Source: Methanomassiliicoccales archaeon (GTDB taxonomy: Archaea; Thermoplasmatota; Thermoplasmata; Methanomassiliicoccales; UBA472). Taken from it: 64,000 bases of DNA. Of the stretch, positions 3,176 to 54,400 are shown one piece after another. The stretch covers positions 907,957-971,956 of the forward strand of contig CP058896.1 of the NCBI GenBank assembly GCA_013415865.1. Reading direction: 5' to 3'. Under the pieces are notes generated by a model, which was not told the origin of the DNA, did not search any database, and worked only from the letters and a program-made list of their open reading frames with translations. Both the position numbers and the translations under genes were made by a program. Positions within the stretch are counted from its first letter, which is position 1. Every line of letters starts with the position of its first letter.

Positions 3176-3279
3176 TTTGACGACTTCGTATGTCATCGAA
3201 TGATGTCTGGCTGATCCCAATCTCTCCTGGCTGTACACCCGTGTCCGGATGCATGCCCGCAACTTTGGGCATTCCCATC

Positions 3280-3768
3280 TTATTTGTTGATCATTTTCTT
3301 CGTATAGCTGACGAGGCCCCCGCTTCTTATGATTTCCATCAGGAAATCGGGCGGCGGCACGAACCTCGTCCTCGCGCCGGTGGATTCGTTGACCAATATT
3401 CCCTTCTCGATGTTGATCAACGCTCTCTCGCCGGTCCTGAACATCGTGGCGGCCTGTTTGCATTCGATCACCGGGAGGCCTATGTTGATGGCGTTCCTGA
3501 AGAATATCCTTGAGAAGCTCCCAGCTATAACTGCGCCCACTCCCGCTGTCTTGATCGCTATGGGGGCCTGTTCCCTGCTGGAACCGCATCCGAAGTTCCT
3601 GCCCGCCACGATGATGTCCCCATATGCCACCTTTTTGCTGAACGACGGGTCGAGGTCCTCCAGGACATGCCTGGCAAGGCTCTTCGGGTCATAATCATCG
3701 AGATAGCGGCCCGGTATTATCAGGTCCGTGTTGATGTGGTCGCCATAGACCCAGACCTTGCCGTTCAT
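3280..3768 (-). CDS. leuD: 3-isopropylmalate (or homoaconitate) dehydratase small subunit
   Basis: The 162-residue swivel-domain subunit of the aconitase superfamily. Signatures are [15 protein letters not shown] near the start, [12 protein letters not shown] (substrate-contacting Ser-Arg), and the [24 protein letters not shown] block. It partners with leuC upstream, overlapping by 4 bp (3765-3768), to isomerise 2-isopropylmalate in leucine synthesis or homologous acids. The substrate-specificity loop after the YL reads YLDDYD, which I cannot assign confidently to either isopropylmalate or homocitrate. The other leucine-pathway genes are not nearby. Confidence 0.93.
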
Positions 3769-5027
3769 GCCAGCAGCCTCCTGGGGTCCGCTATGGCCCC
3801 CTCGACGGCGCTCGCCGCGACGGTGAGCGGGCTTGCAAGATACACTTCGGCATCAGGGCTCCCCATCCTCCCCTTGAAGTTCCTGTTCGTCGTGGATATC
3901 GCCCTCTCCCCCGGCGCCAACAGGCCTTGATGCGCTCCGAGGCACGGACCGCATCCTGGGTTGAGGACGACCGCCCCGGACCGCACAAAGCAAGATATCA
4001 ATCCCTTGTCCGCCGCCTCCAGATATATCTCCCTCGAGGCAGGTACGATGATGAGCCTTACGCCCTCGGCCACCTCCCTTCCGCTCAATATCGTCGCTGC
4101 GGCCACAAGGTCCTCCATCCTTCCATTCGTGCAAGAGCCGATCAACGCCTGGTCTATCGGGATGCCCTCGACCTCCTCGACGGGCCTGACGTTGTCAACG
4201 GAGTGAGGGCATGCGACCTGCGGTCCCAGGGCGGAAACGTCATAATCCTCCCTTCTCTCAACTGGTGCCTCTGGGTCCGAGGTCACCGCTTGATATCCGA
4301 TGTTTCCCCTTCCCTTCAGATAACGGTCGGTCGTTTCATCTGGGAAGCATACTCCTGCCTTTGCCCCCATCTCGACGGCCATGTTGCAAAGGACCATCCT
4401 AGAGGCGATGGTCATCGATGCGACCGTCGGGCCGACGTATTCGACGCAACGGTAATCCGCCCCATCGGCCCCCATCTGTCCTATGACGTTCAATATCACG
4501 TCCTTGGCCATGGTCCCGGCGGGAAGTTTTCCATCGAAATGCAATCTGATCGTCTCTGGGACCTTGAGCCATAGCTCTCCAGTGGTCCATACGGAGGCCA
4601 TCTCCGTTGCCCCGATCCCTGTCGAGAACGCTCCCAGCGCCCCATAGGTCGTCGTATGCGAATCGGTGCCCACGATCAGCATCCCTGGCCTAACATGGCC
4701 TTTCTCAGGCAGGACCTGGTGGCAGATGCCCTCCCTCATATCGTAGAATATTGGCAGCCCCTCCTGCCTCACGAAGTCCCTTACGGCCTTATGGCCCTCC
4801 GCCGCCTTAGTGGTGTTGGCCGGGACCCTGTGATCGAACAGAAGCACGATCTTGTTCCTGTCCCATACGTGGGCCGCGCCCATCTCCTTGAACGACCTCA
4901 GGACCAAGGCGGCATTCTCGTGCGACATGGCCAGGTCTATCTTGGCATTGACTATCTCTCCCGGTTCGACATGGTCCTTGCCAGCAGCTTTCGCCAGCAC
5001 CTTCTCGGCGAAGGTCATCTGAGGCAT
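3765..5027 (-). CDS. leuC: 3-isopropylmalate (or homoaconitate) dehydratase large subunit
   Basis: This 420-residue protein is the catalytic, 4Fe-4S-bearing subunit of archaeal two-part aconitase-like dehydratases. Cluster ligands are visible at Cys299 (GSCTNGR) and Cys359/Cys362 (NPGCGPCLG). Other signatures are LLFDHRVPANT, GTDSHTTTYGALGAF and CHQVLPEKG. Length and motifs are intact. It is the first gene of a two-gene operon with leuD. A TATA-like CTATTTATCC is centred about 29 bases before the ATG with no Shine-Dalgarno element, so the mRNA is probably leaderless. Confidence 0.95.
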   Translation of the reverse strand: MPQMTFAEKVLAKAAGKDHVEPGEIVNAKIDLAMSHENAALVLRSFKEMGAAHVWDRNKIVLLFDHRVPANTTKAAEGHKAVRDFVRQEGLPIFYDMREGICHQVLPEKGHVRPGMLIVGTDSHTTTYGALGAFSTGIGATEMASVWTTGELWLKVPETIRLHFDGKLPAGTMAKDVILNVIGQMGADGADYRCVEYVGPTVASMTIASRMVLCNMAVEMGAKAGVCFPDETTDRYLKGRGNIGYQAVTSDPEAPVERREDYDVSALGPQVACPHSVDNVRPVEEVEGIPIDQALIGSCTNGRMEDLVAAATILSGREVAEGVRLIIVPASREIYLEAADKGLISCFVRSGAVVLNPGCGPCLGAHQGLLAPGERAISTTNRNFKGRMGSPDAEVYLASPLTVAASAVEGAIADPRRLLA

Positions 5028-6062: not shown

Positions 6063-7430
6063 TCAGGCCTCACGGCCGTACCTGAAGATGTACGCTTCGA
6101 CGTCGAACTTCCGCCTGGCCCCGTCCAAGCTCATATACCTGACCTTTCCGAATATCGGCCTCTCTGGCCAGGGCCTGTCGTGCACGCCGCCGATGCACCA
6201 TGCGATGCCTGCGTATCCGTTGGGATCACGTCCATCGAGCTCGTACCTGTCATTTAGATGGATGGCCTTAAAGAGCGCATCCTGTGGGGTCTCCGACCAC
6301 TCCAGGATCTTCTTGCCCCAGTACATCCTCAGGTAACCGTGCATCCTTCCTGTCCTGACCATCTGCAGCTGTGCGGCGTTCCATAGGGGGTCATGGGTAT
6401 CGGCCGATTCCAGCTCATTGATGGAATAAATATATTCGCGCCGGTCGCCGAGATGCTCCTCCAACGACCTTCTGGACCAATCGGGGAATGCCTCGACCGA
6501 ATCATAATTCGAGTTGTAATGACAAAGGTTGTCGGAGAGCTCCCTTCTGACGATGAGCTCCTCGAGGAATGCCGCCTTATCGTTCTCAGGTGCCTCAGAC
6601 CTCATGACCTCGAGCGCCACCCTTTGTGCCGATATCATACCGAAATGAAGGTAGGGCGAGAGTCCGGACTGCCCTTCGATCACCGGATCGTTCCTGTCGG
6701 CCGAGTATCCTCTTAGGCCAGAGGAGATGAGGTCCCTCAGCCTTTTCAAGGCGTGGGATGCGCCGCCCTTGATCTGTATCCTCTGACCTATCGAAGAAGA
6801 CGCTTCTGGGGCCTCGACGTCGATCGGCATCGGAGAGCCGTCTTCATTTCTGACCGACCTCCCCCTGATCGGTGGGGGTGTCCTATAGAGGAACTCAGGA
6901 AGGAGCCTGCCGATCTTCGGCCTGAAGGTCGCTGCGGAATACTCTTGCTTTGGCGACGCTTCCCAACAAGGCACGATGTTGTGAGAATCCACCACCGACA
7001 GGCCCACATCCTGATCGATGGCCAACCTCTCCCTCCATTGTTTTTTTATCCTCAATGGATCGTGGTCCATAACGACCATCGATGCCCTGATCTCCTCGGC
7101 CAGGTCGCCGACCTCTTTCGGGGGGTCCCCTTGAAGGAAGTAGAAAGGTATGTTCAACGCTGAAAGCCGGCCCTCGACCTCCCTGAGGCCCTCGAACATG
7201 AACCTGTAATGCTCCTTGTTCGCCTCAAGGAACCATGGCGCGAGGCAGAACGCCACGACAAGGACTGCGGAGCGTTCTCTGGAAAGAGCGTCAGCGAAGG
7301 TCAACGACCAATTGTCGTCCACCCTCTGGTCCCTGCTCATCCAATATACGACGGGGCCCCGGCCCTCGCCCTGCCTGAGGATCACCGCCCTTCTCATTCG
7401 CAAGATGTCGGTCACGTCATGCTGCTCCAT
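6063..7430 (-). CDS. phr: class II CPD photolyase
   Basis: This 455-residue protein carries class II photolyase hallmarks: VYWMSRDQRVDDNWSL at the start, the SGLSPYLHFGMISAQRVA segment, FLEELIVRRELSDNLCHYN, and the C-terminal block HDPLWNAAQLQMVRTGRMHGYLRMYWGKKILEWS. The final DGRDPNGYAGIAWCIGGVHDRPW-like block is the FAD-proximal class II signature. The enzyme uses blue/UVA light and FADH- to split cyclobutane pyrimidine dimers in DNA. It lies 42 bp downstream of the PLC-like gene on the same strand and may be co-transcribed with it. Length is normal for class II. Confidence 0.95.
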   Translation of the reverse strand: MEQHDVTDILRMRRAVILRQGEGRGPVVYWMSRDQRVDDNWSLTFADALSRERSAVLVVAFCLAPWFLEANKEHYRFMFEGLREVEGRLSALNIPFYFLQGDPPKEVGDLAEEIRASMVVMDHDPLRIKKQWRERLAIDQDVGLSVVDSHNIVPCWEASPKQEYSAATFRPKIGRLLPEFLYRTPPPIRGRSVRNEDGSPMPIDVEAPEASSSIGQRIQIKGGASHALKRLRDLISSGLRGYSADRNDPVIEGQSGLSPYLHFGMISAQRVALEVMRSEAPENDKAAFLEELIVRRELSDNLCHYNSNYDSVEAFPDWSRRSLEEHLGDRREYIYSINELESADTHDPLWNAAQLQMVRTGRMHGYLRMYWGKKILEWSETPQDALFKAIHLNDRYELDGRDPNGYAGIAWCIGGVHDRPWPERPIFGKVRYMSLDGARRKFDVEAYIFRYGREA

Positions 7431-7472: not shown

Positions 7473-8210
7473 TCAAAGGCACCCGTGCCATTCTGCCAGT
7501 TCTATCAGTGAACGATATCTCCTCTCAGATATGGCCATGGACACGGCCGGTATTATTAGCAAGACCAATAATAAGGGGCCGGCCGACCCTAAGGCGAGAA
7601 ATATTAGGATGGTGGCCGACACGGCCGATGTGACCAGTGTTATCGTCCGTATGATCGACGACCGTCTCAACATTTCCTCGATGGACGGGGGCGGGTCCGG
7701 TCCATCGAGGACCGAGGAGATGATCGCTGCCGAATAAAAGGTGGCCTGGGCGAGGGCAGAGAATGGTTCTGAGCTGGGCCTGATGGCCTTCACACATGAA
7801 CGGATAAAATCAGGTGAGCTCTTTGAATGCCTTATACCATTTATGACCTGGCCATGGGGGACCGCCAGTTCCATGATCCGCTCCTCGAGCAGGCAATGCC
7901 TGTGCCAACTAAGGCACCTCGAGACGCACCTGTCCTGGATGTAATGCAGGGCCCTTCCCAGATGTCGACATGCGTGTTCATCGTCGCCATCGAGATATGC
8001 AGCCCGGGCCTTCCACAGAAGGACGGTCGTGGCACGGTCCGAACGCCCGTGATGTGCCACCCTGAGCCTTTTGGTCGTACTTCTTCCTACAAGCACGGGA
8101 TTCCTATCGGGCTCGACCGCCCCGTCCACGATCATCTCCTCATAGTGCTCTGGGACGCCGAGCTCCTTGCAGACGGCCCTTGTGATTGCAGCGTGGCTCT
8201 TCCACTTCAC
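7473..8210 (-). CDS. zinc-dependent phospholipase C-like protein with C-terminal membrane segments
   Basis: The 245-residue product starts V(M)KWKSHAAITRAV; the early Trp and His, a following D-G-A-V-E-P-D block, H-H-G-R, HLGRALHYIQD and H-R-H-x3-E resemble the metal site of the zinc-dependent phospholipase C / S1-P1 nuclease fold. Two hydrophobic helices at the C-terminus (about residues 188-227) would anchor it. The GTG at 8210 fits a leaderless start because GATTTAAATC is centred 26 bases upstream; an in-frame ATG at 8228 lies too close to that TATA box. Function is inferred from fold-like motifs only. Confidence 0.65.
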   Translation of the reverse strand: MKWKSHAAITRAVCKELGVPEHYEEMIVDGAVEPDRNPVLVGRSTTKRLRVAHHGRSDRATTVLLWKARAAYLDGDDEHACRHLGRALHYIQDRCVSRCLSWHRHCLLEERIMELAVPHGQVINGIRHSKSSPDFIRSCVKAIRPSSEPFSALAQATFYSAAIISSVLDGPDPPPSIEEMLRRSSIIRTITLVTSAVSATILIFLALGSAGPLLLVLLIIPAVSMAISERRYRSLIELAEWHGCL

Positions 8211-11918: not shown

Positions 11919-13427
11919 ATGAGCCTCAGGCGATATCACTTCATTGCTAGGATGCCGGATGAGCCAGGTGCCCTGCACAGGGCCGCGGCCATCGTAAAGA
12001 GGTACAGGGGCAACATCGAAAGGATCCATTACGACAGGAGGATAGACCCCTATGTCGTGTTCTTCGAGGTCACCTGCAACGAGGATGAGTATGCTCATAT
12101 TGCAAGGGAGCTGAAGGAGATCGGTTACCTTCAGACCTCCCTTTCGAGCCTGGGCTTCCTTAAGTTCCACGTATATCTGCCGCACAGGGCCGGGGCCCTT
12201 CTCGAACTTTTGAACTTCACCACCGCCTCGGGATGCAACATAGCTTTCCTCGATTTCGATGACAAGAGCAGGACGCCGGACAGGCTGACGGTCTCGCTGA
12301 CGATAGATGATATATCGAAGGTGGACGGGCTTCTAGAGCAGCTGAGGTCCAGATACCCTCTGGAGATAATCGAGTACGATACTACGGGGAAGAACCTGGA
12401 TGATACTGTCTTCTATATCCGCTTCGCACAAGAGCTGAGGGCGATCTTAGGTGACAAAGAGGACCAGTTCCTCATGAAGCTGCTGTCCGACATAGACCAC
12501 ATCGTGCAGGAGCTGACCAACCTCAACAAGGACCCGAAGAAGGTTTTCCAGAGCGTGCTCCAGACGGGCAGAGGCCTCAAGAGCACGGTCGGACCAGGGT
12601 TCTACGCGGACGTGCAGAGGCTCAAGGTGACAGAGCAGGTCGAGCTGTTCTGCTTCCAGATGCCCTGCGGCGGGAACGTCTATGTCCTTCATTCTCAGGA
12701 TGAGATGGTCATGGTCGACTCAGGGTATGCGGCATACCACAACGATATCATGAGGCTGCTCGCCGACCATGGCCTAGGTGACCTCTCGAAGCTGACCAGG
12801 ATATTCGTCACGCATGCCGACGCCGACCATGCCGGGGGCGCCGGACATTTCGACGTTCCTGTCTGGATGCACGCTGGCGCCAAGGAAATCATAGAGGCGG
12901 CCAACCGGGCATACGGTTCCGTCTCTGAGAGCTCGGTGCTGGAAGAGGTCTACACCAAGCTCATCGGTTTGTTCTCGGGGTTCATCCCCCCTCGGAAGAT
13001 AATGACATTCGATGCTCCCATCGGACATGCATGGGGGTTCAATGTCCTCGGCAGGTTCGTAATCGCGGACCTCGAGCTGTCCGTGCTGGAGAGCCTTGGA
13101 GGGCATCAGCATGGGCAGGTATACTTCGCATCAGAGCGTCACGGCATCGTCTTCTGTGGGGACAGCGTCATCAATTTCAAGAGCCTGAGCGAGGAGAGAC
13201 AGAAGTTCAATCTGCTGGCAAAGGACCTCATGACCACGGTGAACGTCGACAGCGACAGGGCGGAGAAGGAGAGGATGATGCTCTTGGAGATGATAAGAGG
13301 ATGGAACGAGGGCCATGATCATGGGGGCAGGGGATGTCTTGTCTGCGGTGGGCATGGGGCCGTGTCCAGATTGGTCGATGATGGACTTGTCATTTATGGT
13401 GCAGTCGAAAAATATCGAGTGAAATGA
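11919..13427 (+). CDS. ACT-domain and metallo-beta-lactamase fusion protein
   Basis: The first about 150 residues of this 502-residue protein look like two ACT modules (RRYHFIARMPDEPGALHRAA and FHVYLPHRAGALLELLNF, each with the D/H-x-P/R-G-A-L turn that binds small ligands). A helical linker (about 155-205) follows. From about 212 onward there is a metallo-beta-lactamase fold with THADADHAGG (His299-x-Asp-x-Asp303-His304), HQHGQV and FCGDSV as metal ligands. The C-terminus holds a Cys/His-rich stretch (HDHGGRGCLVCGGHG). A small molecule, perhaps an amino acid, may gate a hydrolase or oxidoreductase activity. A TATA-like GATTTTTC about 27 bases upstream suggests a leaderless start. Confidence 0.85.
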   Translation: MSLRRYHFIARMPDEPGALHRAAAIVKRYRGNIERIHYDRRIDPYVVFFEVTCNEDEYAHIARELKEIGYLQTSLSSLGFLKFHVYLPHRAGALLELLNFTTASGCNIAFLDFDDKSRTPDRLTVSLTIDDISKVDGLLEQLRSRYPLEIIEYDTTGKNLDDTVFYIRFAQELRAILGDKEDQFLMKLLSDIDHIVQELTNLNKDPKKVFQSVLQTGRGLKSTVGPGFYADVQRLKVTEQVELFCFQMPCGGNVYVLHSQDEMVMVDSGYAAYHNDIMRLLADHGLGDLSKLTRIFVTHADADHAGGAGHFDVPVWMHAGAKEIIEAANRAYGSVSESSVLEEVYTKLIGLFSGFIPPRKIMTFDAPIGHAWGFNVLGRFVIADLELSVLESLGGHQHGQVYFASERHGIVFCGDSVINFKSLSEERQKFNLLAKDLMTTVNVDSDRAEKERMMLLEMIRGWNEGHDHGGRGCLVCGGHGAVSRLVDDGLVIYGAVEKYRVK

Positions 13428-13451: not shown

Positions 13452-14237
13452 TCATCCCTGGAGCGTTCCCGCGAACACCTGCCATGCCAGGGCGGTCTTC
13501 GCCACAAGGCTCAGGACTATGTACATGTACTCCCCGTAAAGGTAGTCCTTCCATTTCCCGACCTTTTTGTATTGGAGCACCATGTTCACCGCGAAGATGT
13601 TGAAGAAGAACGCTATCGAGATGAATATGCCGTACACGAAGTCCGGAGGGCTACCGTTCTGAACGCCGGTGAAGTACATCGCAAGCGCTATCCATGGGAT
13701 AAGGCCCGCGAAACAGCCGAAGATGAATGCCGTCCAATCGGTCCTTTTCGTCGTCTGGTTGTGAAGCTCCATCATGTAGCCGAACAGGTTCATGCATGCG
13801 TTCAGCGAGAACAATAGCATGATCGAGATGAAATCGAACATGCCGCAGAGCCATGCGATGACCACCAGCATGAACGAGCTCGAGACCGCGTACTCGAACC
13901 ATCTGGCCTTGTTAATGTTCATCTTCAGGTTCCTTACATACCAATTATACCCGAAGGTTGAGACGGAAAGATGGGCGATGGCCGACATCAGCAGGAATAT
14001 CGCGACCATCGGGCCAAGAGAGACCGTGAAAAGCTCCTGAGCTGGGCCAGGTCCTGTGGGCGGGAATCCTCCCGCCGCGTCGATGTAGGAGGTCGTAAAG
14101 ATCATCTTCACGCCATAGTCCGCTATGATAAGCATCACTATGGCCTGGAGAAGATGGAGCATCCCCATCACCAGGTTGAACTTCCTTAATTTTTTGAACT
14201 TCACCTCTTCAGGCGCGTCTTTGAACTTCTCTTTCAT
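13452..14237 (-). CDS. heliorhodopsin
   Basis: The 261-residue seven-helix protein carries heliorhodopsin landmarks. The retinal Schiff-base lysine is Lys247 in LSLVAKTALAWQVFAGTL. The counterion is Glu115 in ARWFEYAVSSSFM, followed by the serine run typical of the family. His28 (MLHLLQ) and His89 (IAHLSV) match the two conserved inner-pocket histidines. Heliorhodopsins bind all-trans retinal with inverted topology (N-terminus inside) and do not pump ions; proposed roles are light sensing or partner-protein control. No retinal or carotenoid gene is visible here. An AGGTG Shine-Dalgarno element and an upstream TATA region at 14266-14285 support this start. Confidence 0.95.
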   Translation of the reverse strand: MKEKFKDAPEEVKFKKLRKFNLVMGMLHLLQAIVMLIIADYGVKMIFTTSYIDAAGGFPPTGPGPAQELFTVSLGPMVAIFLLMSAIAHLSVSTFGYNWYVRNLKMNINKARWFEYAVSSSFMLVVIAWLCGMFDFISIMLLFSLNACMNLFGYMMELHNQTTKRTDWTAFIFGCFAGLIPWIALAMYFTGVQNGSPPDFVYGIFISIAFFFNIFAVNMVLQYKKVGKWKDYLYGEYMYIVLSLVAKTALAWQVFAGTLQG

Positions 14238-14265
14238 GAGAACACCTTATCAATAGGCTGACTGG

Positions 14266-14285
14266 CCGATATTTATTATTTATTG
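14266..14285 (-). promoter_or_regulatory. heliorhodopsin promoter (AT-rich TATA region)
   Basis: On the minus strand an AATAAATAATAAATATC stretch is centred about 38 bases before the heliorhodopsin ATG. It predicts a short leader that contains the AGGTG ribosome-binding site. Confidence 0.5.
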
Positions 14286-14401: not shown

Positions 14402-15322
14402 ATGACGGACAACGGGCTGCGAGAGATCCTGGAGAAAAAGAAGTTCATTTTCTTCGGCGGCAAGGGCGGTGTTGGGAAGACGACGATGGCGGCCGCGGCG
14501 GCCACCTGGCTCTCGGACCATGGATACAAGACCATAGTGGTGGCTACCGACCCGACGGTGAGCCTTTCGGCCATCTACGGGCAGCATATCAGCGAGACCG
14601 AGGTGACAAAGATCGGGACCGAGAGGAACCTTTGCGGCCTTAACATCAACCCGAAGAAGGCGATGGGCATGTTCCAGACGAGATTGGAGGGCACTCTGTC
14701 GGGCATCTCTTCGCTCTTCGGGAGCGAGCTCCTCAGCACCCCGTGCACCGAGGAGATAGCGGCGTTCGACCAGTTCGTCTCCTTCTTTGAAGATGAGGAA
14801 CATGACAAGGTCGTCTTCGACACCGCCCCCACAGGTCATACGCTCAGGGAGCTGTCGATGCCATTCGATTGGTCAGGCTACATCTCCAACCAGATCAGGA
14901 ACCGAAGAGAGCTGTCCGAGGCTTTAGGATTCGTATATGATGAAAAGATGGTCGAGGACCTGGCGGCAGAGAAGGAGAGATACGACAGGTCGGTGAAGGG
15001 GCTGTCGGACGAGAACATCTCGGCCTTCAACATGGTCCTGCTGCCGGAGAAGCTCCCGATCGAGGAGACGGCCAGGGCCATCGAGGACCTAGGTAAGTTC
15101 GGGATCAAGGTCCCCGCCCTGATAGTGAACGAGGTGATCCCAAAGGATGTCCTTAAGGGAAACTGGTTCCTGGAGAGGAGGAGCGCCACGCAGGACAAGT
15201 ACCTGGAGGAGATCCATAGACGCTTCGAGGGGAAGATAATAAAAGAGGTCCCGCTCTACGAGACAGACATATTCGGCATCGAGAAGATAAGGATGGTAGG
15301 GAGGGGGCTGTATGGCGAATAA
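14402..15322 (+). CDS. ArsA/Get3-type anion-transporting ATPase
   Basis: This 306-residue, single-domain member of the ArsA/Get3 family of deviant-Walker ATPases has its P-loop at 19-28 (GGKGGVGKTT), with the signature Lys. Switch I is VATDPTVSLSAIYG and switch II is FDTAPTGHTLREL. Cys115 in STPCTEEIAAFDQF sits where bacterial ArsA has its first metalloid-binding Cys, a position Get3 proteins usually lack. The other two ArsA cysteines are not obvious. It overlaps an ArsD-like gene by 11 bp, which favours metal(loid) handling over tail-anchored protein insertion, but no ArsB or ArsR is in view. Confidence 0.85.
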   Translation: MTDNGLREILEKKKFIFFGGKGGVGKTTMAAAAATWLSDHGYKTIVVATDPTVSLSAIYGQHISETEVTKIGTERNLCGLNINPKKAMGMFQTRLEGTLSGISSLFGSELLSTPCTEEIAAFDQFVSFFEDEEHDKVVFDTAPTGHTLRELSMPFDWSGYISNQIRNRRELSEALGFVYDEKMVEDLAAEKERYDRSVKGLSDENISAFNMVLLPEKLPIEETARAIEDLGKFGIKVPALIVNEVIPKDVLKGNWFLERRSATQDKYLEEIHRRFEGKIIKEVPLYETDIFGIEKIRMVGRGLYGE

Positions 15323-15638
15323 GTTGAAGCTCACCGTCCTGTCGTTCTCCTGTTGCAACCCGCAGTTCGCGGCCCATGATGCCAGGTACATGAAGCTCAT
15401 TAAAGATGTCCTGGAGAAGACGGGGATAGAGGCCGACATAGAGCTCGTCACGGTCACCGAGGCGATGATGTCCCTTACCTATGCGTACATGGCCCCGATA
15501 CGACCATTGTTCCAGAAGTACGGATCGGCGGTGGCACCTGCGCTGTTCATCAATGAGACGTTGGCCCTTTTCGGCGGGGTCCCGACCGAGGAGAAGCTCA
15601 TTGAGGTATTGAAGAAAGCGAGCCAGACCGACATTTGA
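15312..15638 (+). CDS. ArsD-like thioredoxin-fold protein with vicinal cysteines
   Basis: This 108-residue protein begins with a strand LTVLSFSCC carrying vicinal Cys14-Cys15, like the Cys12-Cys13 pair of ArsD arsenite metallochaperones. A helix, VELVTV-like strand, PALFINETLALFGGVPTEEKL (cis-Pro region) and C-terminal helix complete a thioredoxin fold. ArsD delivers As(III) or Sb(III) to ArsA, and here the gene overlaps the ArsA-like ATPase gene by 11 bp. Sequence similarity to ArsD is only in pattern, so the metal and partner remain inferred. Confidence 0.7.
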   Translation: MANKLKLTVLSFSCCNPQFAAHDARYMKLIKDVLEKTGIEADIELVTVTEAMMSLTYAYMAPIRPLFQKYGSAVAPALFINETLALFGGVPTEEKLIEVLKKASQTDI

Positions 15639-41831: not shown

Positions 41832-44800
41832 TTACTTCTTCCTGGCACGCATCAGCAGCGCGACCGCGATCAGCAGGACCGCAACCGCAACGACTGCGAG
41901 ACCGACATACATGGCGGTGTTGTCCTTCTCGGCTGCCACCTCCACCATTGTCACTGGCTCAGTCACGGCGGCAGTGGTGCTGACCTCACCGTTCTTGAAG
42001 TCTACCTTGACCTTGTATGTCTCGGCAGCGCTCTTTCCTGCGTCGGTGACCTTATAGGCCACTACCTCGGTGGTGAACTTGCCGTTCGCATCCGTCTTGC
42101 CCTCGGCGATCAGATCACCGGCCGCGTTGTAGACCTTGACGGTCCTTCCCTCGACAGGTGCTCCCTCATCATCGACGGCCGTCACCTCAAGGAAGTACCA
42201 GACCGTGATGGTGTTGCTGTCCTCGGACTTGACCTTCTCCATGACCGTGCTCCTCACTTCAACCTCAGAGCCTGCCATGGCGTATATGTCAAAGTCACCA
42301 GCATCCAACGTCGAGTTCAACACCTTGGCGTCGCAGTTCTCCAGGACGATGGCGTCGTCAACAACCGAGATCGTTGCTCCGTCCACGACCACATCTGCGT
42401 TCACAGCATAGAGGCCGTTGACGTTCTGCACCATTATCTGCATGCTGCTGGTGTTGAGCCCGATGAAGTATGGAACCTCCAGCATTCTCATCTCGATCTT
42501 GTCGGAGAAGCTCAAGGTGCCGCCGTTCAGGTATACACACTGGTACAACATGCCGTAGGTGTTGCCGCTCATCTCAATATCGCTGTCCTCAGCGTAGACA
42601 CCTACCTGCATGAGCGTGCCAATGAGGTCCACCATCGGGTCGTCCATCGGAGGGCTGCTCAAGATAAACGGCAACAGGTCCTCAAGATAAGGCAACATCT
42701 CGAAGAAGTGATGGCCGACCAGCTCCAATACAGGTGCATACTTCGCTAGGGCGTCCATATACATGGTCCAGCCTATCTCATTGTCCTCTATCGAGACGTC
42801 GCTGTCCTTGAGCATGATGGCCACTCCGTTCAGCATGAACACGTTGTCGTGTATCTTGCCGGTGACGCCCTCTCCGTAGATGCCCGCCATGTAGTTCATC
42901 GCGAAGATGGTGTCGTAGACGTTGCCGATGCTAGCGTCCTTGGCATAGATGCCTTGCATCCCTCCCAGGATTATACCGCCTGTTATCGTCGGGTTAGCGT
43001 TCGGACCCTGGATCCACACAACTGCCCTGTCGGAGGCGCCGACCATCGTGCACATCGAGAACATTGGAGAGGCGTTGTCTATGAAGATCGTCTCGAGCCA
43101 AGCTCCTTTGAACTCGCATTTGCGGAACACTGCCGTCGATCCCTCGGCGATGTACACCTGCTTCATGGCCTCGAAGACCGAGAGCTCGGCGCTGACCGTG
43201 CCGTAGATCTCGAACTCAAAGACCTCCTCATAGGCATACATGTAGGTGTTCAGTATGTCCATGGTGCCCTCAACGATCAGCGATGGTGTTCCATCGACGG
43301 AGGATTCTCCGAAGCAGAAGGCCTCAGCGCTCTCGACCTTGAGGTGGCCGCCTTCCAAAACCTTCAGCTCACCATAGAACTCCACGCTGTTCATCAGGAC
43401 AATGGCCTGCTCGTCGACTATCCAGATCAAACCGTGCCACTCGTCGGAGTGGTCAATTTCGCCTGACGACGCGCCTAGCCAAATGCCACCATATGAGTAT
43501 GCGTACAGTCCATATTCTCCATTGTACGAGAATTCGTTGTTGTACAGGTACCCACGGCCCGAACCGATGTCCATGTACAGACCGAAGCCAAGGTTCTTCT
43601 CGAAGGTGTTGTTCCCTATGACGAAGTCGTAACCGTAGTAGAACACGGCACCGTCTCCGCCGTTCTCGCTGAAGGAGTTGCTCTCGATCACGGTCTCGAA
43701 GATCTCATAGAAGTAGGCACCACCGTAGGTGTTCTTCTCGATCACGTTACTGATGATCGCGGACGCCTCCGCATTGTATACATACAGACCCCACTGGTTG
43801 TTTGTTATCACATTGTTCGAGAAGGTCACGTTGTATATGTACTCGAGCAGCACACCGTACTCATCGTCCAGCCCACAGTACGTGACCGAGTTGTCCGATA
43901 TGACCATGTCCCAACCGTCATAGACATAGATGCCACAATCGTCAAACCAGGAGACCTGATTATCGGAGATGACACCTGATGAGTACCCGACATAGATGCC
44001 GTAGTTCCAGCCCTCATTGACGATGTTGCCTGTGATCGTCAGGTGGTCGGCATAGGCCTCGATGCCATAGTAGTATACGGACCAGATCGTGTTGTCCAGC
44101 ACATATACCTCAGTGGTCAGGAGTGACTCGTCGTAGACATCGACGTAAATACCGCAATAGGCGTTTGACACGTCGTTGTCCTCGATGACAAATGACATCG
44201 TCCCCGTCATTGCGGCATATTGGTCATAGTAGTACCACCAATAATAATACGTCTCGACATAGATACCATATGTTTCATCCAGTTCGTTGTCGACCGTGTT
44301 CTGGGCCACTGTGATGGATACTGTGTCGTTCGTCTGGCTCATGCATTCATAGTAGTTGATCATGTATACGTCAACATATGCCGCGATGCCAGCGTAGGTG
44401 GAGTTATAGACCATGTTGTTCACGATCATTCCATTAAACGTCGTGTACTCCATTGCGGCGCCGAGATACGCTTCGGTCCACAGGTACATCTCTATACCAT
44501 ACTGGGCACAGTCGACCATGTTGTCCGATATCTCCACTGTAGCATAGAGAATAGATACGGGCGAGTCTAAGAGGTTGTTCCTTTCATATTCAGTATAAGC
44601 ATCATTCCCAACCTCAACATATATCCCATGATCGAAGTAATTTCCCGCTATGACGTTCTCAACTACCACAATGTCGCTCGTGATGTTGGAGACCGAATCT
44701 CTTCCACCCGCGTAGGCACTCTGGTATATCTCGATGGCGTCAATGTCGACATTGCTCATCTGGACTTGGTTACCAGAGACCGCGATCGAGGTTGTCCCAA

Positions 44801-47582
44801 TGACGGATGGATCGGTCAACAGCGTGTTTCCTGGGTTCCAGATGTCAGTATAGAGGTCGATATAGATCGCGCCGTACCAATCGTAGCTGTAGACGCATTC
44901 GATGCTGTTGTCCATCACCTCTACGTCGACATTATACTCCACGTTCTGGACTATTTCTCCGCCCTCATATAGGGATGCATACGGGAAGTAGTCATAGAAC
45001 CCAAAGTCATTGTCCATCTCAATATACAGCGCCGGGCCAGAGTTGACGACGGTGTTCCTGTTCAACCTTACGGCGTCACTTATGGTGATGTCTCCGGCAA
45101 CGTTCTCTACCTCCCTCCCCAGTGCGATCCTCGCACCGAAGATCATGCCTTCGAGATAGTTGTCCTCCACCACATAAACGCCTTCGATGCTGGACTCCTT
45201 GGTTGCCACGTTGTTCAATCCAAAGTATGCCTCGGAATCGATCAGCACCCCGAACGACTCTATCGTTTCATCCACGAGCGTGTTATCGGATACGATGACT
45301 GATTCGCTTATCCCGACGTCCCCCTCATAGGTGTTCAGGTAGGACGCAACATTGACCAGCGGACCGCTCGAACTGGATTCCTCGATCGCCACAATGTTGT
45401 CCATGATGGTGGTCGATATGTCCGCTGTCAACTGCTCCCCGCTGAACCATAATGAGGTGGACACATCGAACGCGTTCGGATAGTGGAACAAAATCCCACC
45501 GTCATCCCAGAACGGCAATCCAGGCAGCTCAGAGAACTCGTTCCCGGTCACCGTGACTTGTTTTGTCAGGGAGTCCTCGAACACGCTATCGTAACTATAA
45601 TAGTTCGTTTCAGACTTGAACATGGATGCGTCCCAATATGACCAATCCAACAACGGGAGGTCCCCGATGAACAGAACGGTCTCGAAGGTGTTGTTCATGT
45701 ATTCTTCTTCGATCGTCACATCGGAACCGCCCTCATCGAACAGATTGATGCTAGTATAGAAGTATACAGCACCAGAGTCCAGGAGCATGTTGTCATTGAA
45801 CGAGGTTCTTATCAGCATCTCCGAGGTGTTCTCCATGGAGTCGGCTATGTTCACCCATGTCCCTACGTAGGCGACCATGAAACATTTTACGAACTCGTTG
45901 TCGAGAATGTCGACGAACACATCATCGGGCTCCTCCATGTAGGACTCGATGTAGAACACCATGTCGTAGACCTGATAGAAATAGTTGTTCTGTACCAGGA
46001 CATCGACGGCCCCGTAGTACGCCAGCAGATTGACCGCGCCCTCATAATCATAGTTGTTGATCCAGGAGATCTCGCTGTCGGACATCTCGAACATCACATA
46101 GCCTTCCTCTGAGAGGGCATATATGGCGCCCTGGTCGAAGCTGCTTATTGTGCTGTCTGTCATGGTGATTGTAACCTCACCGAGCAAGGTCACAGCGGTC
46201 ACACCGGTGCCTGGCGATAGGCTCTGACCAGAGAGCAGATAGCTCCTATAGTCTTGGTCTGAGGCGGAACCGATCAGGTCACTGATCACATAGTTATAGT
46301 ATCCTGTCACCAAATTAATGGCCGACCATGATGTCGATTCCATGACATTGTAGTTCAATTGTATATCGCCGTTCGCCCACAGGATGACCTCGTACAGGTT
46401 CAATCTGCTGTTCTCATACATCAGACTCTGAGACCATTGGAAGACGGCCCTGTCATCATAGACCTTGAACCCATAGAAGGTAGAGCCCCCATTGACCTCC
46501 ACATTCGAGTTATAGGCTGGATATACATACCCTCCTTGGAGATAGAGATAATCGTTTGTCATGAAGACCTGGTCTATAGATACGCCGGAGAACACGAAGT
46601 CAAATGGCAGTTCGGCCACCAGCATCTCATTGGATGTTGTCTGGTTCTCATCCTCAGAATCGTATGGAATGACCTCGAACTCATACTCTATCTCGGTCAT
46701 TGTGTAGATCCAGGAATCATCATTTGAGTTCGAGCCGTCGATGATGCTCCCATCAATGACCAGCTCCACCGACCCGAACAATGAGTCGGCCGCTACCGAT
46801 ACGTCCTCTTGAGCGGTGAATGTGCAATCAACAACCAACAACTGGATGTCAAGGGTGGCAAGCACGTTCACGGCAGAGAGGCCGCCGTCGATCTTGACGT
46901 TGCTGATCGCTGCATAGACGGTACCATTCAGGTCGTCGCCCGCCTCTATCATTACACCGTCCGCACTATTCCCATTCTCCATCTCGCTGTCGGAAAGACT
47001 GAATCTGATCGCCTGGTCCAGGTTCCTTACATGGATACCATAGGTCCAATAGTTATCTATGGTAATGTCAGAAAGGGTCAGATTGGTCTCAGCCTCGGAC
47101 TCGATTATACGGACACCAATGTAGGTATCGGCAATGTAGACATCCTGCACCGCGATGGTCCCATCTTTGACAAACAGAGAGATGTACGCATAGGTGATGT
47201 TGACGTTCTTCAGCGTCGCTACACCGGTCGAGTTGACAACGATGCCATCCCAATAACCGACCCAGGGGGTTGAGCTGTTAGCACCGAATATTATCGTGCC
47301 ATTGCCTGCCCCGTCAGCGACGAGCGTCCCATCGACTGCAAGGATGGCACCGTTGTCGAATAGTATCGTGGTGCCCTCCTCGATCGTAAGGGTCTCACCC
47401 TCCGCGACCTGGATGTCTCCTGTCACATAATACACATTATCATTTGTCCAAGTACCACTGACCTGACCTGGTTGCACATAGACAGGTGTCGGGGAGTCCG
47501 CTGCCGCCGCATTGGAGTTGAACGCGAACAGCATGGCGAACACGACCGCCAATATGCCCAGGAGGAGAATGGTACGTTTCAT
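41832..47582 (-). CDS. giant surface protein with right-handed beta-helix repeats
   Basis: A 1,916-residue exported protein with a signal peptide (MKRTILLLGILAVVFAMLFAF...) and a very long body of short, Tyr/Asn/Ile-rich repeat strands (INNYDYEGAV, VISDNSVTYCG, GIYVDVYD, ISDNQVSWF) typical of right-handed parallel beta-helices. A C-terminal carboxypeptidase-regulatory-like domain follows (AVDDEGAPVEGRTVKVYNAAGDLIAEGKTDANGKF), then a membrane helix and a basic stop (LLMRARKK). Many N-x-S/T sequons fit the AglB encoded nearby. It is probably an adhesin or cell-surface layer component. The ATG at 47582 follows GGGAAGGG. No PGF-CTERM sorting motif is seen. Confidence 0.9.
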   Translation of the reverse strand: MKRTILLLGILAVVFAMLFAFNSNAAAADSPTPVYVQPGQVSGTWTNDNVYYVTGDIQVAEGETLTIEEGTTILFDNGAILAVDGTLVADGAGNGTIIFGANSSTPWVGYWDGIVVNSTGVATLKNVNITYAYISLFVKDGTIAVQDVYIADTYIGVRIIESEAETNLTLSDITIDNYWTYGIHVRNLDQAIRFSLSDSEMENGNSADGVMIEAGDDLNGTVYAAISNVKIDGGLSAVNVLATLDIQLLVVDCTFTAQEDVSVAADSLFGSVELVIDGSIIDGSNSNDDSWIYTMTEIEYEFEVIPYDSEDENQTTSNEMLVAELPFDFVFSGVSIDQVFMTNDYLYLQGGYVYPAYNSNVEVNGGSTFYGFKVYDDRAVFQWSQSLMYENSRLNLYEVILWANGDIQLNYNVMESTSWSAINLVTGYYNYVISDLIGSASDQDYRSYLLSGQSLSPGTGVTAVTLLGEVTITMTDSTISSFDQGAIYALSEEGYVMFEMSDSEISWINNYDYEGAVNLLAYYGAVDVLVQNNYFYQVYDMVFYIESYMEEPDDVFVDILDNEFVKCFMVAYVGTWVNIADSMENTSEMLIRTSFNDNMLLDSGAVYFYTSINLFDEGGSDVTIEEEYMNNTFETVLFIGDLPLLDWSYWDASMFKSETNYYSYDSVFEDSLTKQVTVTGNEFSELPGLPFWDDGGILFHYPNAFDVSTSLWFSGEQLTADISTTIMDNIVAIEESSSSGPLVNVASYLNTYEGDVGISESVIVSDNTLVDETIESFGVLIDSEAYFGLNNVATKESSIEGVYVVEDNYLEGMIFGARIALGREVENVAGDITISDAVRLNRNTVVNSGPALYIEMDNDFGFYDYFPYASLYEGGEIVQNVEYNVDVEVMDNSIECVYSYDWYGAIYIDLYTDIWNPGNTLLTDPSVIGTTSIAVSGNQVQMSNVDIDAIEIYQSAYAGGRDSVSNITSDIVVVENVIAGNYFDHGIYVEVGNDAYTEYERNNLLDSPVSILYATVEISDNMVDCAQYGIEMYLWTEAYLGAAMEYTTFNGMIVNNMVYNSTYAGIAAYVDVYMINYYECMSQTNDTVSITVAQNTVDNELDETYGIYVETYYYWWYYYDQYAAMTGTMSFVIEDNDVSNAYCGIYVDVYDESLLTTEVYVLDNTIWSVYYYGIEAYADHLTITGNIVNEGWNYGIYVGYSSGVISDNQVSWFDDCGIYVYDGWDMVISDNSVTYCGLDDEYGVLLEYIYNVTFSNNVITNNQWGLYVYNAEASAIISNVIEKNTYGGAYFYEIFETVIESNSFSENGGDGAVFYYGYDFVIGNNTFEKNLGFGLYMDIGSGRGYLYNNEFSYNGEYGLYAYSYGGIWLGASSGEIDHSDEWHGLIWIVDEQAIVLMNSVEFYGELKVLEGGHLKVESAEAFCFGESSVDGTPSLIVEGTMDILNTYMYAYEEVFEFEIYGTVSAELSVFEAMKQVYIAEGSTAVFRKCEFKGAWLETIFIDNASPMFSMCTMVGASDRAVVWIQGPNANPTITGGIILGGMQGIYAKDASIGNVYDTIFAMNYMAGIYGEGVTGKIHDNVFMLNGVAIMLKDSDVSIEDNEIGWTMYMDALAKYAPVLELVGHHFFEMLPYLEDLLPFILSSPPMDDPMVDLIGTLMQVGVYAEDSDIEMSGNTYGMLYQCVYLNGGTLSFSDKIEMRMLEVPYFIGLNTSSMQIMVQNVNGLYAVNADVVVDGATISVVDDAIVLENCDAKVLNSTLDAGDFDIYAMAGSEVEVRSTVMEKVKSEDSNTITVWYFLEVTAVDDEGAPVEGRTVKVYNAAGDLIAEGKTDANGKFTTEVVAYKVTDAGKSAAETYKVKVDFKNGEVSTTAAVTEPVTMVEVAAEKDNTAMYVGLAVVAVAVLLIAVALLMRARKK

Positions 47583-47905
47583 AATAGCCCTTCCCATCAA
47601 TGGATAGGCCTGATCAATTGCTTGTTCCATTTTTTAATCCCCCTTATGAAGGTCTTTTCCTCCTAAATGGACCTTCAGGTAGTGCAAATGAATCATCCTC
47701 TTCATTACTTATAATTAATCGTGCCATTGTATGAACTGTAATTTTGATAATTGACTGTTCGATAGATGCTCTAATCATAAATGGCGTGTAATGAACAAAT
47801 TAATTCATAATTCACAAACGACCGTTTCTGATCTGTACATCGGTCGAGGATGCTCAGCAAAGATATTTTCGAAGGGTTAAAGTAAGGCGGTCGGGTTTCC
47901 TGATC
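47583..47905. other. AT-rich divergent intergenic region
   Basis: About 320 bp between the giant surface gene and hypB holds no gene. It contains the TATA box (CTTATAATT, 47705-47713) and 8-bp inverted repeat for the giant gene, and a weak TATA-like GGGTTAAAG near 47880 for hypB. The middle (47700-47860) is strongly AT-rich. Confidence 0.6.
47647..47677 (-). promoter_or_regulatory. inverted repeat in the 5' region of the giant surface gene
   Basis: TGAAGGTC and GACCTTCA are perfect 8-bp arms with a 15-base loop, some 65-95 bases before the start. With TATA at 47705-47713, the hairpin would sit at the extreme 5' end of an about 100-nt leader. Confidence 0.45.
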
Positions 47906-50637: not shown

Positions 50638-51429
50638 TCACTTCTTCTTTCTCTTCTTTCTCTTCGGCGGTCTCCTGTAGATGACGTAGACCAATATTGC
50701 CAGCAGTACGACGAATGCCCATAGCCACGCATTTATCGGACCAAACCCGCTGACATTGTAATAGATGGTCGTCGTGGATTCCTTCCCTTCATCATTGACC
50801 GTGATGAGCTCTGAATCGGGGTCTATGACCACCTTTATCTCATGCTTCCCTCTGGACAGGTCATACGAGGTCCAATTGTACCAGACGGTCCGTTGGCCTA
50901 AGGCCGGGACGGAGACGGTCGTGTTGTATATCTCTTCAGGCGAGTCCTTGTCGTCATTGAGATAGAAGAAGACCGGCACGTTGTTGATGGTCACATTCCC
51001 AGCATTCTTCAGTACGGCCTTGATGACGATGGGGTCGACCGCCTTGAGGTCGACCTTCAATGTCTTAGAGACGTTGGTCGAGACGTTGAACGACTTCGCC
51101 GTTATCTCTACATTGAACTTACCGGCGCTCTTAGGTGCGGTGAGGTTGAAGAAGAACACCCCTGTTCTAGACGGTCCTCCCATCGATGGTGTCAACCTCG
51201 CCTCGGTCCCCAGATCGCCGCCCAGCTTTGCCGACCAGGTATAGTTGCCCCCAGTGGTGTTACCAGGTCCGCCGCTGACGACGACCTTGTATTGTTGCTT
51301 GACGCCCACCCCGAGGGTCCTCGGCCCGATGAGCTCGATCTTGACGCTGTTGTCCTCCTCCTCGGCCTGCGCGCTGAGCGGCATGAGCGCCAGACCTATG
51401 AACGCAAGGAGCAGGATGGCCGTTATCAC
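50638..51429 (-). CDS. secreted CARDB-domain membrane protein, coupled to AglB
   Basis: The 263-residue product starts with a signal peptide (ILLLAFIGLALMPLSAQA), has two Ig-like regions, the second a CARDB-type domain (VDPIVIKAVLKNAGNVTINNVPVFFYLNDDKD, VIDPDSELITVNDEG), and ends in a transmembrane helix and basic tail (RRPPKRKKRKKK). The GTG start overlaps the aglB stop as GTGA. Its layout copies the C-terminal end of the neighbouring AglB (NEW3/CARDB-like domains and a helix). I infer an accessory role to the oligosaccharyltransferase. Confidence 0.8.
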   Translation of the reverse strand: MITAILLLAFIGLALMPLSAQAEEEDNSVKIELIGPRTLGVGVKQQYKVVVSGGPGNTTGGNYTWSAKLGGDLGTEARLTPSMGGPSRTGVFFFNLTAPKSAGKFNVEITAKSFNVSTNVSKTLKVDLKAVDPIVIKAVLKNAGNVTINNVPVFFYLNDDKDSPEEIYNTTVSVPALGQRTVWYNWTSYDLSRGKHEIKVVIDPDSELITVNDEGKESTTTIYYNVSGFGPINAWLWAFVVLLAILVYVIYRRPPKRKKRKKK

Positions 51430-54400
51430 TTTCTTCGTCCGAACACCCCCCTCTGGTAGCTATAGTAGACAGCCAGCGCGGCCAACAACACCAACACGGT
51501 GAACGCCACATACGTCTCGAGCGGGATCTCGGGCAGCTTGTCCTTCACCCCGACGCCTTCGACCGTCAGACCTCCATCCTCAGGTATCGTGAGGTCTGGG
51601 AATACGGCTGTCATGGTAAGTTCCTTCATCCTTGCTGAGTCGTCCCTGGACTTGACCATCAACGTTATGTTGACGTTCGGGTCTTGGCTCTCCCCTACCC
51701 GTGTGAGCGATACCTCGACGTTCCTTGACCTTCCAGCGTCAAGGCTCATGTTCACATATCTGCTGAACCCTCCGGTCTCCCCGACCCTTATGGTCGCGTT
51801 CCAGCCCTTCGCCAACAGCTCGGCGGCGTTCGCGACCTCGACGTGGTAATTGTCATCGGCATTGCCTGTGTTCTTCACAAGGTACTTGTAGACATGGCTG
51901 GATGCGTTCTGGGCGTTGGCCTGCACATATGTTATGTTGATATCATACCTCGGCTCTATGTTAACGTCGAGCCCGAGCTGTGCGCTCGCACCTGACCCTG
52001 TGATGGACTTCGCCTTGAGGACCACCATTGCGTGCTTGACATAGACGGTGCTTCCAGGCGTGAGAGTGACGGTCACGTTGACGTACCCGTCGGTCCCATA
52101 GGGGACGTTCTCGATGACCCTCTGCGATATCGAGATGTTCCAACCGCTCGCTGTCGCATTGAGCTCGTATGAGTCGATCGCATTGCCTGTGTTCCTGACC
52201 CTCACGTTGTAGGCCGCAGACCCGCCCGCACTGACGGTCTGCTTGATGCCGTCCCATGATAGGCTGACCGAGTATTCGACCACCTTGGTCACGTCTATGT
52301 TGACGACCGATGCCGAGCTTAGGTCGACGTCCTTCGTCCCTTTGTACTTGACCAATATGCCCTGGTCCGTCTTGTTCGCCGTCGCGGTCACCGTATAGGT
52401 GCCCGCAGGCAGCCATACCTGATAGCTTCCATCCGCCTCGGACTCGAACTCGTGGTATGCCTCGCCTGATGATACCTTGACCTTTGCTGGAACGGCCACA
52501 CCGTCAAGCCTCACGACCCCGCTCAGGGAGGTCCCTGGGCCAAGTGCGACCCCAAGCTCATTGTCAACATAGGGCATGATCTCGATCTTACCAAGGAATG
52601 TCTCGTTCATCGGCGATCTCGCGTATAGGCTATAATTGCCAGGCGCCAGGTCGATAGAGCCTGAGCTCGCGGTGAACATCTTATCGATGGCCGTGCCGGA
52701 CAATGCGATGAACCGGTATTCGACATCGGCCAGGAGACCATTGACGGTCGAATTGTCATAGCTCCTCGTCAATGGTATATCGACCGATTTGGCGACCATG
52801 TCAAAGGCGAGGTTGATATCGGCCGTGTAACGCATGTACTTATAATCTGTCTGGCCTGGCAGCCTGGTCAGCATCCTGTGGTCCACGGTCACGTTGTATA
52901 TGCCCTCTGCCATGTAGAGCGTCAATGTACCTGTCAAGGACGTGAACGCCGTGTACTCCGCTCCTGTTGATGGGTCCCTGAGAGCGACTTTCACCCTGGC
53001 CATCAAGGCACCGTTGTTGTGCTCCACGGTGGCATCTATGCGCTTGGCCAGGACCGCGGTGAGGTCGAGGCCCAGAGGCGCGCTGACATTGACCTTTTGG
53101 AACACCACGTAGCGGGTGGTGTTTGACACCATCAGCGCATAGAGGCTATAATTCCCCTGCCTGAGATAGACGGTGTATTGTCCAGTTGTGTTGAGGCTCA
53201 CGCTGTCGCCCTCATTGGCTATGAAGGTCATGCTTCCGCTTCCAGGCGTGATCACCCCTGTGACCTTGTACCGCACGACCGCCTCCAGGTCCATAACGAC
53301 CGGGTCCTGCCCGACGGTGATGTTCAACAGATAGTTCCTGATGAACTGGTACTGGGACCCGTCATCTCCAGCCGTCACGTCCTGGGCGAGTACCAGCCTG
53401 TAATTGCCCGGCCTGAGCTGGACCGAGTAGCGCCCTTCGGCGTCCGTCGTCACGTTGACGCTGACGGCGGCCCCGCCGTTCTTCTTGAACTCGAAGGTCA
53501 TGTCCCCAAGCCCGCTCCCGCCAAGGTCGATCTTTCCAGACACGTCCCTTACCGAGCCGACCAGGTTGATGTTGTTGGACAATGTCCCGCTGACATTCGT
53601 CATCGGGATGACCACATCGTCGTAATACTTCAATGAGACCTTCAGCTCGAGGTCGGTGCCGTTCGGGACGGCCACGCTGTAAATACCGGTCTTGCCGCTG
53701 ACCGTTCTTATGTACCAGCCATTGCTGTTCGTCACGGTCAAAGTGATGTTGCCCCTCAGCTCCGAGGTCTGTATCTGTCCATCGCCGCTCACGTCCGACC
53801 AGACCTTGCCCGTCAGGATTGCCCCTTTTGTGAGGGATATGTTGACATTGGCCGCCGCGACCTTTTCGCCCCAGAAGACCTTGTCGCTCTTATATGCATA
53901 GACCACATAGGTGCCCGCCGGGACCGCCAGGCGGTATTTTCCTGCGGCGTTCGTCTGGCCATATATCACCGCCCCAGCGGGGGCCCTCAGCGCGATCGAG
54001 GCCGATGGGACGGAGTTGTTCCCATCTTTGACCGTGCCCTCCATTATGACGGCCTTCGACAAGGCCAGATTGACACTGGCCACATCGGTCGCCGCCAACA
54101 TCTTAAGGGCGACGTTCTCTTGGCCGTCCTGCACGCTCAGAGCATACACTGTGTAATCGAGCTTAGGGACCACTGCACTGTAATGCCCATTGGCATCTGC
54201 GACGGTCCATATCGAGACCTGCTCTGTCATGAACGCGACCCGGGCATAAGGCACAGGCAGGGATGCAAAGGTGACCTGCCCGCTGACGGCCATGGCATTG
54301 TAGAGCGTGACCGTCTCGACCACCGTCTCACCTGCAGATATCTGGTATCGCTTCTCGCCCAACGTATAGGCGGAATCGTTCGCCCTCAGGGTGTAGTTGC

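What the first reader, a model, noticed from the sequence alone, without database searches (positions are those of the whole stretch)
13452..14237. Heliorhodopsin in an archaeal context with full retinal pocket
Lys247, Glu115, His28 and His89 occupy the positions of the Schiff-base lysine, counterion and pocket histidines of heliorhodopsins. Seen directly: the motifs LSLVAKTALAWQVFAG and ARWFEYAVSSSFM. Known: heliorhodopsins bind retinal in an inverted orientation and do not pump. Inferred: this lineage senses or uses light. No retinal-forming gene (blh/brp) or carotenoid gene lies in the window, so the chromophore may come from elsewhere in the genome or the environment.
Basis: partly seen in the sequence, partly recalled or inferred. 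Interest (0 to 1): 0.8.

Follow-up and report, generated by a model that had tools for sequence, protein, structure and literature searches.

The report
Heliorhodopsin gene in a methane-producing archaeon
This is a genuine, apparently working gene for a heliorhodopsin (a light-absorbing membrane protein), in a methane-making archaeon that lacks the known genes for making the retinal pigment; a light-driven DNA-repair gene lies nearby, so this supposedly dark-living microbe probably meets and senses light.

Summary
Confirmed. The ORF at 13452-14237 lies on the minus strand and encodes a 261-aa heliorhodopsin (Pfam PF18761, E=1.8e-96; NCBIfam HeR equivalog). The nearest solved protein is TaHeR, about 51% identical. 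K247, E115, H28 and H89 align with K238, E108, H23 and H82 of TaHeR. AlphaFold2 (pLDDT 91) puts K247 in helix 7. Ortholog pairs show dN/dS of about 0.04-0.15.

New context:
- The genome is a near-complete Methanomassiliicoccales methanogen (mcrA present).
- It carries a second, divergent heliorhodopsin 226 kb away with the same four residues.
- No phytoene synthase, Blh/Brp-type or RPE65-type gene was found in it, so any retinal must be scavenged or made by an unknown route.
One published heliorhodopsin binds and boosts that photolyase class.

Most likely role: a slow light sensor using scavenged retinal and acting through cytoplasmic protein contacts. The partner is unproven; the photolyase is the best candidate. 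It is a new member of a known family. What is unusual is the host: I found no open-access paper discussing heliorhodopsin in this methanogen order.

The parts
13452..14237 (-). heliorhodopsin gene, 261 aa
   Evidence: PF18761 E=1.8e-96; TaHeR E=1.5e-79; model matches TaHeR and 48C12
13497..13499 (-). codon of K247, Schiff-base lysine in helix 7
   Evidence: aligned with K238 of TaHeR and K241 of 48C12; invariant in 111 sequences; in helix 232-259 of the model
13893..13895 (-). codon of E115, counterion
   Evidence: aligned with E108 of TaHeR and E107 of 48C12; invariant in 111 sequences
14243..14248 (-). putative ribosome-binding site AAGGTG
   Evidence: read from the sequence; not tested
14270..14284 (-). 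AT-rich box, possible TATA element of a promoter of its own
   Evidence: read from the sequence; position fits an archaeal promoter (own knowledge); not tested
14402..15322 (+). ArsA-type ATPase, divergent neighbour
   Evidence: PF02374 E=1.3e-73; conserved neighbour in the family; probably a bystander
15312..15638 (+). thioredoxin-fold protein, follows the ArsA-type gene
   Evidence: PF13192 E=6.8e-8; conserved neighbour
11919..13427 (+). ACT domain plus metallo-beta-lactamase fold protein, convergent neighbour ending 24 bases away
   Evidence: PF00753 and PF01842; conserved neighbour
6063..7430 (-). class II CPD DNA photolyase, candidate partner and sign of exposure to light
   Evidence: PF00875 E=2.8e-32; archaeal class II photolyase 2xry E=7.9e-145; linked to the heliorhodopsin block in five other genomes

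Best explanation
The gene makes a standard, functional heliorhodopsin: seven helices, N-terminus inside, retinal held as a protonated Schiff base on K247 with E115 as counterion and H28/H89 in the Schiff-base cavity (inferred from homology). The cell has none of the known retinal-forming enzymes tested, so the opsin probably takes up retinal from outside, through the membrane opening seen in other heliorhodopsins (inferred). Light drives a slow photocycle without pumping, and the shape change on the positively charged cytoplasmic face alters a partner protein (inferred). The partner is most plausibly a protein for coping with light; the linked class II photolyase is the leading candidate (about 1 in 4). 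The methanogen thus uses it as a light or photodamage sensor, not as an energy source.
For: Family, fold and residues. Strong constraint, dN/dS 0.04-0.15. N-inside loop charges, 18 Lys/Arg inside against 1 outside. No retinal-forming or phytoene synthase gene found in the genome. Class II photolyase in the same window and near the heliorhodopsin in five relatives; both genes decayed in G021. Carotenoid synthesis tracks heliorhodopsin in the order, 10 of 11 (p=6e-6, relatedness not corrected). Precedents: heliorhodopsins that regulate a class II photolyase (PMC9769723), glutamine synthetase (PMC9529153) and an ABC transporter (PMC11109279); uptake of outside retinal proposed for TaHeR (PMC9385722).
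Against: No measurement of retinal binding, expression or signalling. The photolyase is 6 kb away and not in the same operon. G017 and G018 keep the heliorhodopsin without a photolyase at that site, and no photolyase lies within the about 7 kb read around the f6 heliorhodopsins. Cow-rumen strain RumEn M2 has a close ortholog, and the rumen is dark.
Confidence: 0.6

Rival explanations
1. A light sensor whose partner is not the photolyase: a neighbour (ArsA-type ATPase with its thioredoxin-fold protein, or the ACT/metallo-beta-lactamase protein) or an unlinked protein.
For: The gene order ArsA-type / heliorhodopsin / ACT-metallo-beta-lactamase is kept in several genera of the family. The few partners known from other heliorhodopsins are very diverse (PMC11109279).
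Against: G001 has the same neighbours with no heliorhodopsin between them; several genomes of family f5 have the ArsA-type gene and no heliorhodopsin, and f6 has the reverse. The genes are divergent or convergent, not one operon. So linkage to these neighbours looks accidental.
Confidence: 0.45
2. The protein works without retinal, or binds another molecule, as a structural or small-molecule-sensing membrane protein; the cells rarely see light.
For: No retinal-forming enzyme was found in the genome; a close ortholog occurs in a cow-rumen strain (PMC10658910).
Against: The lysine, counterion and TM7 serine are invariant in all 111 sequences and the pocket histidines are kept in all 39 from this order, which is hard to explain without a Schiff-base chromophore. 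Photolyase in the window implies light.
Confidence: 0.12
3. A light-driven ion transporter.
For: One heliorhodopsin, from a giant virus, transports protons (PMC9448325).
Against: The window protein is closest to TaHeR among solved proteins; the prokaryotic heliorhodopsins studied so far are reported not to pump ions (PMC9529153). Residues specific to V2HeR3 were not mapped here.
Confidence: 0.03

Closest known systems
TaHeR, heliorhodopsin of Thermoplasmatales archaeon SG8-52-1 (PDB 6is6, 7u55)
   Same: Same family and fold, about 51% identity; same lysine, counterion and pocket histidines; host also said to lack a means of making retinal (PMC9385722).
   Different: TaHeR falls in another branch of the tree; here the host is a methanogen with two paralogs and a linked photolyase.
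HeR 48C12 (PDB 6su3, 6uh3)
   Same: Same family, about 44% identity, same key residues.
   Different: Distant branch; some cavity residues differ, such as M219 here against Q213.
TfHeR with class II CPD photolyase, Trichococcus flocculiformis (PMC9769723)
   Same: A heliorhodopsin and a class II CPD photolyase encoded close together.
   Different: One operon in Trichococcus; about 6 kb and several genes apart here, and binding is untested.
Heliorhodopsins of Bathyarchaeota (PMC7110647) and Lokiarchaeota (PMC7997004)
   Same: Heliorhodopsins in archaea from sediments; retinal route incomplete in the Bathyarchaeota genomes.
   Different: The host here carries mcrA, has two paralogs and a linked photolyase.

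Membership tests
Heliorhodopsin | Match to the curated family models above cut-off | tested here: met
   PF18761 322.6 bits against 26.7; NF038020 321.9 against 100
Heliorhodopsin | Seven helices with the Schiff-base lysine in helix 7 (SxxxK) | tested here: met
   S243 and K247, helix 232-259
Heliorhodopsin | Glutamate counterion in helix 3 | tested here: met
   E115 aligns with E108 of TaHeR and lies in helix 110-130
Heliorhodopsin | Best structural neighbours are heliorhodopsins, not type-1 rhodopsins | tested here: met
   top 10 matches are all heliorhodopsins; type-1 rhodopsins follow at E of 0.003 or worse and 9-15% identity
Heliorhodopsin | Inverted topology, N-terminus inside | tested here: met
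   by prediction only: 18 Lys/Arg in inside segments against 1 outside
Heliorhodopsin | Binds retinal | not testable with these tools
   pocket residues kept; needs expression
Heliorhodopsin | Long photocycle without ion pumping | not testable with these tools
   needs spectroscopy and electrophysiology
TfHeR-like photolyase helper | Class II CPD photolyase encoded in the same operon | tested here: not met
   class II photolyase is present, but about 6 kb away with oppositely directed genes between
TfHeR-like photolyase helper | Positive loop residues equivalent to R162 and K227 of TfHeR | not tested
   the TfHeR sequence was not aligned here; the DE and FG loops do carry lysines and arginines

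The most novel reading that the evidence does not exclude
An anaerobic methane-maker runs two heliorhodopsins entirely on scavenged retinal, and one of them works with a class II photolyase as a light-gated DNA-damage response, so that light directly regulates a methanogen.
Probability: 0.2. Interest if true: 0.7.

Novelty: new member of a known kind. Interest (0 to 1): 0.45.

Why it matters
Methanogens are usually treated as organisms of the dark. Here, in one methanogen order, heliorhodopsins match in 39 of 147 genomes (a few only as fragments or remnants), sometimes two per genome. The host lacks the known retinal-forming genes tested, and in this family the gene lies near a light-powered DNA-repair gene. 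If the protein binds retinal in the cell, it is a clear case of an anaerobe depending on foreign retinal, and a simple setting to test what heliorhodopsins do, which is still largely open.

Tried and rejected
- Photolyase survey with PF03441 missed the window's own photolyase; class II enzymes evidently score poorly on that model. Its near-empty result is not evidence of absence.
- Functional link to the ArsA-type ATPase: weakened by G001, where the same neighbours lie together without the heliorhodopsin, and by genomes with one gene but not the other.
- Co-loss test in G014, a genome without a heliorhodopsin match: about 1.38 Mb of it was read. Its photolyase is intact, but a contig ends next to the expected heliorhodopsin site, so it is uninformative. 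Its last contigs could not be fetched.
- The short-chain dehydrogenase beside the f6 heliorhodopsins as a retinol dehydrogenase: best PDB matches are an uncharacterised protein and protochlorophyllide reductases, so no support.
- Another seven-helix family: excluded.
- Weak BCD hits in G001 and G040: below cut-off with stops inside; treated as chance.
- The first dN/dS run mishandled minus-strand genes; redone.

Full report
OBSERVATION. The open reading frame 13452-14237 is on the minus strand and encodes 261 residues. Pfam and NCBIfam identify it as heliorhodopsin far above their cut-offs. The best solved relatives are TaHeR (E=1.5e-79) and 48C12. In an alignment of 111 heliorhodopsins, E115, S243 and K247 are invariant; K247 matches K238 of TaHeR and K241 of 48C12, E115 matches E108 and E107, H28 matches H23 in both, and H89 matches H82 and H80. 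AlphaFold2 on a 30-sequence alignment gives pLDDT 91 and puts K247 in the last helix. Every PDB match with E<=0.001 is a heliorhodopsin, with TM-scores of about 0.9 to TaHeR. Loop charges fit an N-terminus inside the cell: 18 Lys/Arg inside against 1 outside. Ortholog pairs show dN/dS of 0.04-0.15 (synonymous sites are near saturation for the more distant pairs), so the gene is under constraint.

HOST. The window lies in a single-contig genome of 1.818 Mb, 99.8% complete. The genome carries a match to the methyl-coenzyme M reductase alpha subunit in a 558-aa open frame, so it is a methanogen. Members of this order are methanogens mainly known from animal guts, with poorly known environmental members (PMC7824343). 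One open-access paper names both heliorhodopsin and this order, and only in a reference title. Subscription papers and preprints were not covered.

HOW COMMON, AND HISTORY. Heliorhodopsins match in 39 of 147 genomes of the order and 18 of 22 in the window's family; a few are fragments or remnants. The host has a second one at G000:C1:1147148-1147900 (51% by tblastn, 49% in the alignment), downstream of iscS/iscU-like genes, with the same four residues. The tree splits the order's genes into four groups. The window gene and the paralog fall in different groups, and the window gene's group has genes of family f6 nested among those of f1. That nesting suggests transfer into f6, which includes a cow-rumen strain (PMC10658910). 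At the window's site, between the ArsA-type gene and the ACT/metallo-beta-lactamase gene, G000, G005, G010, G017 and G018 hold this group, G012 and G020 hold a tandem pair of two groups, and G013 holds only the other group. G021 keeps only about the first 12 and last 20 residues. G001 has the same neighbours with a short gap and no heliorhodopsin between them. So this is a site of gain, exchange and loss.

CHROMOPHORE. The genome has no match to phytoene synthase (seven control genomes ring), to the Blh/Brp-type dioxygenase (the model rings elsewhere in the phylum) or to the RPE65-type oxygenase (controls ring). Both retinal-forming families use O2 (own knowledge), which a methanogen would lack. 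Retinal must then come from outside or by an unknown route. For TaHeR, whose host is also said to lack retinal synthesis, uptake through a side opening has been proposed (PMC9385722). Eleven genomes in the order do have phytoene synthase, and ten of these also carry a heliorhodopsin (p=6e-6, relatedness not corrected). In three loci examined the cluster is a CrtI-like oxidase, phytoene synthase and a UbiA-type prenyltransferase, which looks like a C50 carotenoid pathway (inference) serving protection rather than retinal.

LIGHT CONTEXT. The same window encodes a class II CPD photolyase at 6063-7430. It lies near the heliorhodopsin in G005, G010, G012, G013 and G020 as well. In G021 both genes are decayed. 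In G017 and G018 the heliorhodopsin is intact but the photolyase is missing from that site. A photolyase works only in light, so its presence argues that these cells meet light. A heliorhodopsin from Trichococcus binds its class II photolyase and raises repair about 3-fold (PMC9769723). This makes the photolyase the best candidate partner, but the genes here are not in one operon and the linkage is not universal.

MECHANISM. Shown by computation: identity, pocket, fold, constraint, host, absence of the tested retinal genes, linked photolyase. Inferred: retinal binding, uptake from outside, slow photocycle, signalling through the cytoplasmic face, photolyase as partner. The neighbouring ArsA-type and ACT/metallo-beta-lactamase genes look like bystanders.

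VERDICT. It is an ordinary member of a known family in an unusual host.

Noticed in passing
   Followed up: yes
L144:7643-8419 (G000:C1, about 226 kb from the window gene): Second heliorhodopsin in the same genome, about 50% identical, in another branch of the tree, downstream of iscS/iscU-like genes.
   Followed up: partly
L123, L125, L126: Carotenoid-type cluster (CrtI-like oxidase, phytoene synthase, UbiA-type prenyltransferase) in some methanogens of this order; 10 of the 11 genomes with phytoene synthase also carry a heliorhodopsin.
   Followed up: partly
L168 about 3209-3966 and 7770-7870 (G021): Heliorhodopsin reduced to its two ends, and the linked photolyase also decayed, in one relative.
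   Followed up: partly
L063, L070, L083, L045: Heliorhodopsins in which both pocket histidines are leucine while the lysine and glutamate are kept: three from Actinomycetota (Solincola-like) and one unnamed.
   Followed up: no
L161, L163: In family f6 genomes the heliorhodopsin lies near a short-chain dehydrogenase gene; in L163 also near a HamA-domain gene.
   Followed up: partly
window 41832-47630 (-) and 51426-57953 (-): Two very large ORFs (1932 and 2175 aa). The first carries right-handed beta-helix/NosD repeats, likely a surface protein; the second was not identified.
   Followed up: no
G014 contig 17 end, G015 contig 113 start, G016 contig 73 start: Assembly breaks fall right at the heliorhodopsin block in several relatives, so some 'absences' may be gaps and the prevalence is a lower bound.
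   Followed up: partly
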